A stretch of DNA of 64,000 nt from Thauera sedimentorum (GTDB lineage: Bacteria; Pseudomonadota; Gammaproteobacteria; Burkholderiales; Rhodocyclaceae): NCBI RefSeq assembly GCF_014489115.1, contig NZ_JACTAH010000001.1:1612001-1676000 (forward strand). The letters run 5' to 3'. The position numbers and the translations under genes are program-made. Shown here piece after piece: positions 23,483 to 32,215 of this stretch. Position 1 is the first letter of the stretch; each line of letters opens with the position of its first letter. Below the pieces are notes generated by a model. The model searched no databases. It saw nothing but the letters and a program-made list of their open reading frames with translations, and was not told the DNA's origin.

Positions 23483-24814
23483 ATGTCGAAGCGCAAGGGT
23501 TTGCTGCTTGACCAGCAGGGCACGATAAGTGCCGCTGTGCAGAGACTAGGGTTCACCGATTGGGATTTCCTCACACTCGACAATCTCGATGCCGCGCGCA
23601 AGGCGCTCTCCGGGCGCCCGCCGCTGGTCGGACTGGTGGTTTTCGACTCTGCACGCAGCTGGCCGGCACGCCAGCTGGAATCCCTGATCTCGCGCCACCA
23701 GATCGAGTGGATCGCGATCCTCGAACGTTCGCTGATGCAGGACGGCGATCTGGCACCGCTGGTCGCGCGCAGCTTCCACGATTTCCACACCCTGCCGCTT
23801 GACCGCGAACGCCTGCGCATGACCCTCGGGCATGCGCACGGCAAGGCGGTGATCTCGCGTGCCGCGGCGGAGTTCCCGCAACACCCCGGCCGCTTCGGCA
23901 TGACCGGCAGCAGCGACAGGATGCAGGCACTCTTCCGGCAGATCGAGCGTATCTCCACGGTGGATGCACCGGTGCTGATCGGTGGCGAGTCCGGCAGCGG
24001 CAAGGAACTGGTCGCGCGCGCCATCCATTCGCATTCGGATCGCAAGAACGGCCCCTTCATTGCCATGAACTGCGGCGCGATCCCGCCCAACCTGATCCAG
24101 TCCGAGCTCTTCGGCCACGAGCGCGGCGCCTTCAGCGGCGCCCACCAGCGCAAGATCGGCAACATCGAGGCGGCCAACGACGGCGTGCTCTTCCTCGACG
24201 AGATCGGCGACCTGCCACTGGATCTGCAGGCCAACTTCCTGCGCTTCCTGCAGGAGCACACCATCGTGCGGGTAGGCTCGACCGAACGCGTGCGGGTCAA
24301 CGTGCGCATCCTCGCGGCGACCCATGTCGACCTGCATCGTGCGGTGGGCGAAGGCCGCTTCCGCGAAGACCTCTTCTACCGGCTCAACGTGGTCCATCTC
24401 AAGGTGCCGGCGCTGCGCGAACGCAGCGACGACATCACCCTGCTCGCCGATACGATCTTCAACGACAACATCCACCAGAAGGCACCGCAGGTGCGGGGCT
24501 TCAGTTCGGAAGCGCTGCGCGCCATGCAGGAATACCCCTGGCCGGGCAACGTGCGCGAGCTGATCAACCGCATCCAGCACGCGATGATCATGAGCGAAAA
24601 CCGCCTGATCACCTCGGCCGACCTGGGCCTGCCACAGGCACAGCAGGAACCCGACACCCCCACGCTGGACGAGGCGCGGGCCTCGGTGGAGAAGGAGATC
24701 ATCGTCAGCAACCTGCGCAAGTACCGCAACAACGTCTCCGAAGTCGCCCGCCAGCTGGGCGTCTCGCGCGTCACCCTGTACCGCATGATCGACCGCCTCA
24801 ACATCGTTCTCTAG
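23483..24814 (+). CDS. VpsR-like σ54-type transcription activator
   Basis: Regulator of 443 residues. The N-terminal domain (1-130) has a receiver-like layout but no evident phosphorylatable aspartate cluster (KGLLLDQQGTI..LVGLVVFDSARSW), as in VpsR-type regulators of biofilm genes. The AAA+ domain follows: GESGSGKE near residue 168, GAFSGA near 215 (Thr of the GAFTGA loop is Ser), and GVLFLDEIGDLP. The C-terminus is a Fis-type helix-turn-helix (NVSEVARQLGVSRVTLYRMI). AAGGGG precedes the ATG. The outer-membrane gene follows after 58 bases without a promoter I can see, so they are co-transcribed. I infer that it activates the two σ54 promoters at 30192 and 32276. Confidence 0.9.
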   Translation: MSKRKGLLLDQQGTISAAVQRLGFTDWDFLTLDNLDAARKALSGRPPLVGLVVFDSARSWPARQLESLISRHQIEWIAILERSLMQDGDLAPLVARSFHDFHTLPLDRERLRMTLGHAHGKAVISRAAAEFPQHPGRFGMTGSSDRMQALFRQIERISTVDAPVLIGGESGSGKELVARAIHSHSDRKNGPFIAMNCGAIPPNLIQSELFGHERGAFSGAHQRKIGNIEAANDGVLFLDEIGDLPLDLQANFLRFLQEHTIVRVGSTERVRVNVRILAATHVDLHRAVGEGRFREDLFYRLNVVHLKVPALRERSDDITLLADTIFNDNIHQKAPQVRGFSSEALRAMQEYPWPGNVRELINRIQHAMIMSENRLITSADLGLPQAQQEPDTPTLDEARASVEKEIIVSNLRKYRNNVSEVARQLGVSRVTLYRMIDRLNIVL

Positions 24815-24872
24815 GGCCACGCCCGGCCCCTGCGCCGGCCGCCCCGTTCTAACAACAAGGGGAGAAACGAAC

Positions 24873-30477: not shown

Positions 30478-30502
30478 TGAAGCGGCACTTGGTTCCCTTC
30501 GG

Positions 30503-32215
30503 TTACTGGGTCACGGGCCCTGCCGTGCTGCGGATCGCCAGGTTGGCCTGGACGTTCGCGCTCTGCTGGACCATCGCCCCCATCGCGGTGTTCTGCGCGT
30601 TGATCAGGATGCCCGCACCGTTGGTGAAACTCGCGCTGGAGCTGTTGGACATGTTGAAGTGCCCGGCCGTGGCCATCACGCTGCCGCCGTTGCCACCGGC
30701 ACCGCCTGTACCGCCCTGGCCGCTTCCGCCGGTCGCGGCGCCTGCGGTGTTCATGCCGCCGCTACCGCCGGCACCGCCGACATTGTCGCCACCACCTGCA
30801 CCGCCGGCACCGCCGGCACCCGCCATCGCGTCGCCGTTGGTGGCATTGCCGGACGTCGCCACGCCACCGGCGCCGCCTGCACCCGCGGTATTGGTCGCAC
30901 TGCCACCGGCGCCGCCGGTGGAGTCGGCATTGCCCGCACTGGCGGTCGCCGCACCGGTTGTCGCCGCGCCAGCGGTCGAGCTGGCTTCACCGCCGGTACC
31001 GTTGCCGTCGCCCGCATTTGCAGTGGCGCCGGCCGAGCTGGCCGCACCGCCGGTGGCGCTGGCCTCACCGCCGGTTGCCTCGGCCGTCTGGCTGTTGCCG
31101 CCGCTCGTGCTGGTGGCATCGCCCGCGGTGCCGCCGACCACGTTGCCGCCGTTGCCGGCACCGCCCGCTCCGCCACTGGCCATGGCGTCGTTGGTGCCGC
31201 CCATGGCATCGGCCGCGCCGCCGTTGCTCAGTACCGCCGGCGTCTCACCGTTGGTCGGCGTTTCGGGCGTGCAGCAGCCGCTCGCGTCGGCATTGGCGCC
31301 CTTGGCCTTGGCCCAGGCGCTGCCACCGTCTCCACCGCTGCCGTCGCTATAGCCTCCGCCGGCGTAGGAGCCTGCCTTGGCCCCGCCGGTATAGGCTTGC
31401 TCGTAGGCCTTGGCATTGCCGCCGTCGGCATAGCCATTACCGCCATCGGCCGCATCCGCAGCCTTGGCGTCGCCACCGTAGCCGCCGCCGTAACCACCGT
31501 CGGAGTAGGCATTGCCGCCATCGGCCGAGTTGCCGGCCTTGGCATCGCCGCCGGCTGACATGGCGTTGCCGCCTTCACCGCCGGACGCCTTGCGCGCATT
31601 GCCGCCATCGCCGCCATTGGCACCCTTGGCGTAGCCGGTCTTGGCATCATCGACCCAGGCCTTGCCACCCTCACCGCCATCACCGCCATTGCCGCCATGG
31701 GCATGGGCGCCATTGCCGCCGTAACCGTCGGCATCGCCACCCGCAGCCTTGCCACCGTCACCGCCTACCGCCGTTCCACCATCGCCACCGTTTGCATTAC
31801 CGTAGTTCCGTACGCTGTTGCCGAGGTCATTGGCCTTGATCCGGGTCACCACGCCATGGAGCTTGGACACCGCCACGGCCTTGGAGGTGTTGAACACGTC
31901 GCTGAGCGAGGCGGTGGCCATGCCGCCGTTGTTCGCTGCGGCCGCTCCCTTGCCCTCTGCGAGCGCCTTGCCGAGATTGTCGCGGTTGCTGCCGGTGCTG
32001 CTGTCGTTGTTCTGGTTCGAGTTGTCGTCGGCATGGATCTGCGAAAACTCATTGGCCTGCGGACTGTTGTTGCCCGTCATCGAAGAGACGGCCGAGGCTT
32101 CCTGAGTATTCGCCCCCCCAACCGAACTGACCGTATTGGTCGGGTTCGCCCACACCTGGCTGCCGGCCATGCCGAAAGCCAATGCGAGCGCACTTGAGAG
32201 TAGCGTGCGTTTCAT
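30503..32215 (-). CDS. Exported Gly/Ala/Asn-rich repeat protein, candidate fibre subunit 2
   Basis: Paralogue (570 residues) of the product at 28477-30132 with the same layout: signal peptide (1-23), N-terminal domain with SPQANEFSQIHADDNSNQ and TASLSDVFNTSKAVAVSKL, GGDGG-x-A repeat domain (about 143-310), a Cys-Cys pair at 314-315, a Thr/Ser/Ala-Gly repeat half, and the conserved end AGHFNMSNSSSASFTNGAG..INAQNTAMGAMVQQ. The two share about the same Cys-pair position although the repeats between have diverged. The start at 32215 follows AAGGGGAAG. It is transcribed alone from its own σ54 promoter and ends at a strong terminator. Function inferred as surface fibre or matrix protein. Confidence 0.82.
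   Translation of the reverse strand: MKRTLLSSALALAFGMAGSQVWANPTNTVSSVGGANTQEASAVSSMTGNNSPQANEFSQIHADDNSNQNNDSSTGSNRDNLGKALAEGKGAAAANNGGMATASLSDVFNTSKAVAVSKLHGVVTRIKANDLGNSVRNYGNANGGDGGTAVGGDGGKAAGGDADGYGGNGAHAHGGNGGDGGEGGKAWVDDAKTGYAKGANGGDGGNARKASGGEGGNAMSAGGDAKAGNSADGGNAYSDGGYGGGYGGDAKAADAADGGNGYADGGNAKAYEQAYTGGAKAGSYAGGGYSDGSGGDGGSAWAKAKGANADASGCCTPETPTNGETPAVLSNGGAADAMGGTNDAMASGGAGGAGNGGNVVGGTAGDATSTSGGNSQTAEATGGEASATGGAASSAGATANAGDGNGTGGEASSTAGAATTGAATASAGNADSTGGAGGSATNTAGAGGAGGVATSGNATNGDAMAGAGGAGGAGGGDNVGGAGGSGGMNTAGAATGGSGQGGTGGAGGNGGSVMATAGHFNMSNSSSASFTNGAGILINAQNTAMGAMVQQSANVQANLAIRSTAGPVTQ
30660..31780. repeat. Tandem coding repeats (GGDGG-type) in repeat protein 2
   Basis: Degenerate short repeats coding for GGDGGxA/GGNGG units and (T/S)GGxAx units, same style as at 28640-29715 and probably a recombination hazard between the two genes. 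Confidence 0.85.

What the first reader, a model, noticed from the sequence alone, without database searches (positions are those of the whole stretch)
23483..32215. Fap-like secretion locus with unusual Gly-rich repeat proteins
The sequence shows an activator, a coiled-coil plus barrel outer-membrane protein, a stand-alone periplasmic C39-like peptidase, two small exported proteins and two exported repeat proteins of 551 and 570 residues. In Pseudomonas, FapD (C39-like) and FapF (coiled-coil barrel) are parts of the functional amyloid machine. Here the presumed subunits are GGDGG-type repeat proteins and the regulation is by σ54, which I do not know from a described Fap system. I infer a surface fibre or biofilm matrix system of a new variant.
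Basis: partly seen in the sequence, partly recalled or inferred. Interest (0 to 1): 0.9.

Follow-up and report, generated by a model that had tools for sequence, protein, structure and literature searches.

The report
Fap-like export locus, glycine-rich subunits
A bacterium carries a relative of the Pseudomonas amyloid-secretion machine that appears to export large glycine-rich proteins instead of the usual amyloid, and two of its other exported proteins carry a conserved site that hints at what the machine's own protease may cut.

Summary
23483-32215 encodes a sigma54-type activator, a FapF relative (E 4.5e-33 to crystallised FapF), a stand-alone FapD-like C39 peptidase, two exported proteins (362 and 126 aa) and two Gly-rich exported proteins. 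In 31 full-flank loci found through the barrel protein alone, C39 is in 31 and the other three protein kinds in 27 each. It is a sister lineage of Fap, not a Fap member: the defining FapB/FapC repeats are absent. Links to Fap remain: the 362-aa protein sits in FapE's place with a FapE-like motif, and one module shared by the Gly-rich and 126-aa proteins is distantly related to Fap repeats. New lead: the two non-Gly-rich exported proteins carry [LM]xxxRGG in all relatives counted (44 and 43), and FapE carries [LM]xxxRG[RK] in 20 of 20. Both resemble double-glycine leaders, a candidate cut site for FapD-type peptidases, whose target is unproven. Sigma54 sites lie 59-60 bp before both Gly-rich genes and recur in relatives, but also precede some fap operons, so they are not distinctive. 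Fibre formation is inferred; AlphaFold gave no usable model of the Gly-rich protein.

The parts
23483..24814 (+). REG: sigma54 enhancer-binding activator with VpsR-type N-terminal domain
   Evidence: Pfam Sigma54_activat 2.3e-69, VpsR 8.6e-11, HTH_8 1.2e-9; GAFSGA loop and Walker A; a relative lies near the barrel gene in 18 of 31 full-flank named loci
24873..26177 (+). OMP: FapF-type outer-membrane channel with N-terminal coiled-coil region
   Evidence: NCBIfam FapF E 4.5e-48 over residues 22-431, 164 bits against a cut-off of 700; crystallised FapF 5o67 E 4.5e-33
26202..27290 (-). P362: exported FapE-like protein with leader-like motif and Q/N-rich C-terminal part
   Evidence: lies between C39 and OMP, as FapE does; profile comparison with FapE E 2e-4, probability 47%, over the motif; RGG in 31 of 31 aligned rows, window included
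26565..26585 (-). LDEMRGG motif in P362 (residues 236-242), proposed C39 cut site
27314..28018 (-). C39: stand-alone FapD-like cysteine peptidase, probably periplasmic
   Evidence: NCBIfam FapD E 7.4e-42, 143 bits against a cut-off of 330; bacteriocin-exporter peptidase 7n87 E 9.7e-12; Pfam C39 1.7e-24
28030..28410 (-). P126: exported protein with leader-like motif and one C-terminal module
28225..28245 (-). LDGLRGG motif in P126 (residues 56-62), proposed C39 cut site
   Evidence: 44 of 44 P126 relatives in Gly-rich loci have L at P7 and RGG; window residue numbers
28477..30132 (-). GR1: Gly-rich exported protein, 551 aa
   Evidence: conserved N- and C-terminal caps around a variable Gly-rich middle
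28480..28617 (-). C-terminal module of GR1
   Evidence: module shared with P126
30192..30206 (-). sigma54-type -24/-12 site TGGCATGGTGCTTGC, 59 bp before GR1
30503..32215 (-). GR2: Gly-rich exported protein, 570 aa
   Evidence: 61% identical to GR1 in the family alignment
30506..30667 (-). C-terminal module of GR2
32276..32290 (-). sigma54-type -24/-12 site TGGCACAAGGCTTGC, 60 bp before GR2

Best explanation
This is a Fap-type surface-fibre export locus of a sister lineage to the Pseudomonas Fap system, in which the major subunits are Gly-rich proteins. Shown by sequence: a FapF-type channel, a FapD-type peptidase, a FapE-like protein in FapE's gene position, and a module shared by the Gly-rich proteins and P126. 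Inferred: all exported proteins cross the inner membrane by Sec. The periplasmic C39 peptidase cuts P126 and P362 just after their [LM]xxxRGG leader, as C39 domains cut double-glycine leaders, and frees their Q/N-rich C-terminal parts. These, then GR1 and GR2, leave through the channel; P362 anchors and P126 nucleates a fibre of GR1 and GR2, whose C-terminal module joins subunits while the Gly-rich part is exposed. The activator switches on the two Gly-rich genes with sigma54. It most likely serves attachment or biofilm matrix.
For: Homology of channel and peptidase. Co-occurrence: of 31 full-flank named loci found with the channel alone, C39 in 31 and P126, P362 and Gly-rich gene in 27 each; of 11 full-flank nearer relatives, C39, P126, P362 and activator in 11 and Gly-rich in 10 (one of the 11, L155, appears to be the record L033 again). 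Gene order GR-P126-C39-P362-OMP on one strand in the Lysobacter loci parallels fap B/C-D-E-F. Leader motif: P126 44 of 44; P362 43 of 43 (40 by regex, the other 3); FapE [LM]xxxRG[RK] 20 of 20, among them 4 loci over the curated FapF cut-off. The Gly-rich proteins lack it: [LM]xxxRGG in 0 of 48, though 21 of 48 hold RGG somewhere. The P362 model has a short helix at 233-239, ending in the motif (low confidence). Module set against Fap repeats: profile E 1.2e-5, probability 81%, score 25.0 against at most 17.0 in 150 column shuffles. Two loci of the same lineage without Gly-rich genes carry four-copy versions of the module. -24/-12 sites matching at 9 or 10 of 10 positions before 37 of 48 Gly-rich genes, against 2.75% of 4800 random windows.
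Against: Neither protein reaches the NCBIfam equivalog cut-off for FapF or FapD. The strict Fap repeat pattern fits 0 or 1 member of each family, and taken alone the Gly-rich C-cap (probability 1%), P126 (18%) and P362 (under 1%) do not match Fap repeats convincingly; only the wider module set does. P362 and the Gly-rich C-cap do not match each other. AlphaFold gave no usable model of GR1 (pLDDT 39) and a weak one of P362 (57) without a PDB match at E <= 0.001. A looser form of the motif, [LIVM]xx[LIVMYQST]RGG, also occurs in 180 of 3974 ORFs of 150 aa or more in these GC-rich loci, non-coding ones included. In loci of the lineage where no Gly-rich gene was seen, the P126 relative has RG in 5 of 12 rows. 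Rouse 2017 states that Fap proteins hold no canonical C39 sequence; its mass spectrometry misses FapE peptides over about the first 70 residues, longer than the leader marked here, and saw FapA unprocessed (passages). In 13 of 31 full-flank named loci no activator was found nearby.
Confidence: 0.68

Rival explanations
1. A plain Fap operon that has merely diverged, with GR1 and GR2 as FapB and FapC.
For: Channel, peptidase, FapE-like gene and gene order agree with Fap; the module set is distantly related to Fap repeats.
Against: No three-repeat FapB/FapC; the strict repeat pattern fails. C39 sequences of this lineage lie across a long, well supported branch (63 rows, 100/98, length 1.06) from 19 Fap rows. 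One genome (G012) holds both a Fap operon (L080) and a Gly-rich locus (L103).
Confidence: 0.15
2. A secretion system for Gly-rich proteins that form no fibre, for example a hydrated coat or sheath.
For: The Gly-rich middle varies much in length (whole proteins 273 to 870 aa), shows only weak Gly periodicity, and no fold was predicted.
Against: Conserved N- and C-terminal caps and a C-terminal module shared with P126 suggest assembly.
Confidence: 0.25
3. The C39 protein processes bacteriocin-like peptides and the locus is a bacteriocin export system.
For: C39 family; P126 and P362 have double-glycine-like leaders.
Against: The peptidase is stand-alone, none of the ten proteins scanned is an ABC transporter, and a FapF-type channel lies next to it.
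Confidence: 0.04
4. The RGG motif is a structural element or channel-targeting signal, not a peptidase site.
For: In FapE the P1 residue would be Arg or Lys (13 and 7 of 20), unusual for C39 as I recall; three of 93 channels hold such a motif too.
Against: L or M at P7, mostly hydrophobic P4, G at P2 and, in most FapE rows, L at P12 and E at P8 match the double-glycine leader layout (consensus recalled); two protein families of each Gly-rich locus share it beside a C39 gene.
Confidence: 0.3

Closest known systems
Fap functional amyloid system (fapABCDEF) of Pseudomonas and others
   Same: FapF-type channel, FapD-type C39 peptidase, FapE-like protein between them with a like motif, gene order, and sigma54-type sites in some fap loci
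   Different: No three-repeat FapB/FapC; major subunits Gly-rich with one distant repeat-like module at the C terminus; motif ends RGG instead of RG[RK]; scores below the curated FapD and FapF cut-offs
Fil putative pilus system of Acinetobacter (FilB C39 peptidase, FilC barrel)
   Same: C39 plus barrel pair; FilB E 2.3e-30 and FilC E 6.3e-16
   Different: Weaker match than Fap; no other Fil model matched
Double-glycine leader peptidases of bacteriocin ABC exporters (PCAT, ComA type)
   Same: C39 sequence family and leader layout (recalled)
   Different: Here stand-alone with a signal-peptide-like N terminus; none of the scanned proteins is an ABC transporter
PEP-CTERM response regulator family (TIGR02915)
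   Same: the activator resembles it, 374 bits
   Different: Below its cut-off of 502.6 bits; PEP-CTERM proteins were not searched for

Membership tests
Fap system | FapF-type channel | tested here: met
   E 4.5e-48 to NCBIfam FapF, 4.5e-33 to the FapF crystal sequence
Fap system | Score over the curated FapF and FapD equivalog cut-offs | tested here: not met
   164 of 700 bits and 143 of 330 bits
Fap system | FapB and FapC with imperfect repeats X15GX4NX3GX6NX7 | tested here: not met
   strict core in 1 of 34 P126, 0 of 37 P362, 1 of 35 C-caps, 1 of 30 N-caps; distant profile similarity of the module set only
Fap system | Stand-alone C39 peptidase (FapD) with catalytic Cys, His, Asp | tested here: met
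   over all loci of both lineages the pattern is complete in 81 of 88, 3 are cut by contig or locus ends, 4 did not fit my pattern and were not examined further
Fap system | A gene in FapE's place between FapD and FapF | tested here: met
   collinear order in the Lysobacter loci
Fap system | Sequence homology of that protein to FapE | tested here: inconclusive
   aligned over the motif, 29 columns, E 2e-4, probability 47%
Fap system | FapA | tested here: inconclusive
   a FapA query found no Gly-rich locus protein; P126 could correspond by leader motif only
Fap system | Amyloid fibres on the surface | not testable with these tools
   needs staining and microscopy
Fil system | Other Fil proteins beside FilB and FilC | tested here: inconclusive
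   none matched among 7 proteins, but I did not check which Fil models the library holds
C39 bacteriocin exporters | C39 domain fused to or beside an ABC transporter | tested here: not met
   no ABC family among the ten proteins scanned

The most novel reading that the evidence does not exclude
FapD-type peptidases are periplasmic double-glycine-type leader peptidases that recognise [LM]xxxRG[G/R/K] and cut two minor subunits (FapE, and a P126/FapA-like protein) before export; and a sister lineage of Fap, spread over Beta- and Gammaproteobacteria and missed by screens that require Fap repeats, builds its fibre from Gly-rich proteins that hold a single repeat-like module.
Probability: 0.45. Interest if true: 0.75.

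Novelty: new variant of a known kind. Interest (0 to 1): 0.62.

Why it matters
[quoted passage not shown] A motif conserved across two lineages names one place to test. The 2025 survey in that review required FapB/C repeats within 5 kb of another fap gene (passage), so loci of this kind would fall outside it; they may be a matrix system of their own in Thauera, Lysobacter, Variovorax and Massilia relatives.

Tried and rejected
Structure of GR1 from a 27-row alignment: pLDDT 39, no fold claimed. P362 model: pLDDT 57, Foldseek against the PDB gave nothing at E <= 0.001. Idea that sigma54 control sets this locus apart from Fap: rejected. Idea that the GR proteins themselves are cut by C39 at the same motif: [LM]xxxRGG in 0 of 48. 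Cys-Cys pair in GR1 and GR2 as a general trait: only in the two window proteins, 2 of 48. Cut site in the channel linker, as suggested for FapF: motif in 3 of 93 channels, not general. FapA as a second FapD substrate: a leader-like ELSDxD[FI]Axx motif is in 4 of 4 loci over the FapF cut-off, but published mass spectrometry saw FapA unprocessed (passage of PMC5557850). A first C39 catalytic regex (0 of 87) had wrong spacing and was replaced. In one search four P362 rows (L011, L012, L015, L041) were picked in a wrong part of the ORF; one search shows RGGF in all four. Row L156: one search picked RGM, one search found no better motif; it counts as 14 of 15 in the rows without a Gly-rich gene, which also include three loci (L002, L014, L036) cut by contig ends. 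The window's C39 protein also holds an RGG (residue 217) without L or M four residues before it. Rows dropped: two Gly-rich ORFs without a start in the locus (L028, one of L031) and duplicates. For 14 of the 20 FapE rows the ORF was picked with help of position and motif; the 6 of L140-L145 were found by profile alone. L083 has an activator and a perfect site but no C39 was seen, so I left it out of the sigma54 count.
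Full report
What is there. The window comes from a genome near Thauera: the closest named record of the channel is a Thauera metagenome bin at 82% identity, an inference from one gene. The locus holds an activator (REG) and a channel (OMP) on the + strand and, on the other strand, GR2, GR1, P126, C39 and P362 in reading order. Two are named by sequence families: OMP is a full-length relative of FapF and C39 a relative of FapD, both below the curated equivalog cut-offs. 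OMP also matches crystallised FapF at E 4.5e-33; the PTGxG motif, of which FapF's PTG is the core (PTG from PMC6173800, passage), is in 77 of 93 channels of both lineages.

Co-occurrence. I searched named genomes with OMP alone and got 42 loci. Of the 31 with at least 5 kb on both sides, 31 hold the C39 gene and 27 hold P126, P362 and a Gly-rich gene; the four without are Halomonas-type loci (L037-L040). A relative of the activator lies near in 18 of 31. Record titles include Aromatoleum, Azonexus, Dechloromonas, Variovorax, Massilia, Lysobacter and Pseudoxanthomonas. Among 121 genomes searched as relatives, own genome included, 18 hold an OMP match, 14 of them below E 1e-98; in the window's own genus 3 of 6 genomes have one, so presence is patchy.

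Gly-rich proteins. Besides the window's two, 46 members with a recognisable start were collected, 273 to 870 aa long. They share a signal peptide, an N-terminal cap and a C-terminal cap around a middle of changing length. No Pfam or NCBIfam model matches the window's two at E <= 0.1.

Leader-like motif. P126 relatives in Gly-rich loci read LxxxRGG in 44 of 44; P362 relatives read [LM]xxxRGG in 43 of 43. With E at P8 (14 of 20) and L at P12 (15 of 20) the FapE stretch follows the layout of double-glycine leaders (recalled consensus LSxxELxxIxGG). P362 and FapE align over this stretch (E 2e-4, probability 47%), and both lie between peptidase and channel. As 14 of the 20 FapE rows were gathered partly by eye for the motif, the 6 found by profile alone matter most. 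Where no Gly-rich gene was seen, the P362 relative has RGG in 14 of 15 rows and the P126 relative RG in 5 of 12; of the other seven, six read RA or SG at that place, and the seventh (L090) is a four-repeat subunit whose locus has a P126 reading RGM. A looser form of the motif is not rare in these GC-rich loci (180 of 3974 long ORFs, non-coding included): the weight lies in its conservation at one place in two families.

Shared module. P126 and P362 are related (profile E 7.5e-10), and P126 and the Gly-rich C-cap share a module (E 8e-6); P362 and the C-cap do not match. Two loci without Gly-rich genes (L090, L097) carry the module four times in one subunit. The module set built from all of these (104 rows) scores 25.0 against 99 Fap repeats, column-shuffled controls at most 17.0 in 150. 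Taken alone, the C-cap (probability 1%), P126 (18%) and P362 (under 1%) do not, and the strict Fap pattern does not fit. I read this as distant kinship: a repeat protein in which one module was kept and a Gly-rich stretch grew. That history is an inference.

Regulation. The window has two perfect TGGCAYN5TTGC sites, each 59-60 bp before a Gly-rich gene. Before 48 Gly-rich genes, the window's two included, 37 have a site matching at 9 or 10 of 10 positions, 36 of these 37 at 57-86 bp; of 4800 random 300-bp windows of the same loci 2.75% reach that. Six Fap-type loci have the same arrangement of activator and site.

Lineage. In a tree of C39 domains (83 rows) the 19 Fap rows form one group (83/83, under the strong mark) and 63 rows another (100/98); one very long row, L102, stands apart. 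A sub-group of 48 rows (99/95) holds all 45 rows from Gly-rich loci and 3 others. The root is a midpoint, so 'sister' is my reading. One genome holds a Fap operon and a Gly-rich locus (L080, L103).

Literature. Seen: search listings (one search returned none); of PMC3792158 the abstract, the first part of Results, the first part of Discussion and the Methods; passages of PMC5557850, PMC6173795, PMC6173800, PMC3684753 and PMC4751259; passages and section 9 of PMC12822426. PMC3792158 already noted that FapD and FapF profiles hit larger families, and PMC6173800 reports fapD and fapF neighbours in five more phyla, so the pair itself is known to be wider than Fap. In what I saw I met no description of the Gly-rich type; nine later paper searches failed, so absence from print is not shown.

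Score. Homology and co-occurrence are firm; the motif is a strong lead; cleavage and fibre are inferred.

Noticed in passing
window 62992-63060: Rfam int-alpA RNA on the + strand (64.4 bits), by its name tied to integrase genes; GC is also lower in the last 4 kb.
   Followed up: no
window 32512-34563 and 34676-35311: PAS histidine kinase and LuxR-type response regulator next to GR2; no such pair beside the Gly-rich genes was seen in the named loci.
   Followed up: partly
L031: A Massilia genome with two consecutive sets of the Gly-rich system, the first cut by the locus start.
   Followed up: no
L144: Two C39-FapE pairs in one Fap-type locus.
   Followed up: no
L090, L097: Loci of the same lineage whose main subunit has four Q/N-rich copies of the shared module instead of a Gly-rich stretch.
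   Followed up: partly
L005, L089, L091: Channel proteins with an RGG leader-like motif before the barrel.
   Followed up: no
L140-L143: FapA of loci over the FapF cut-off carries a leader-like ELSDxD[FI]Axx motif.
   Followed up: partly
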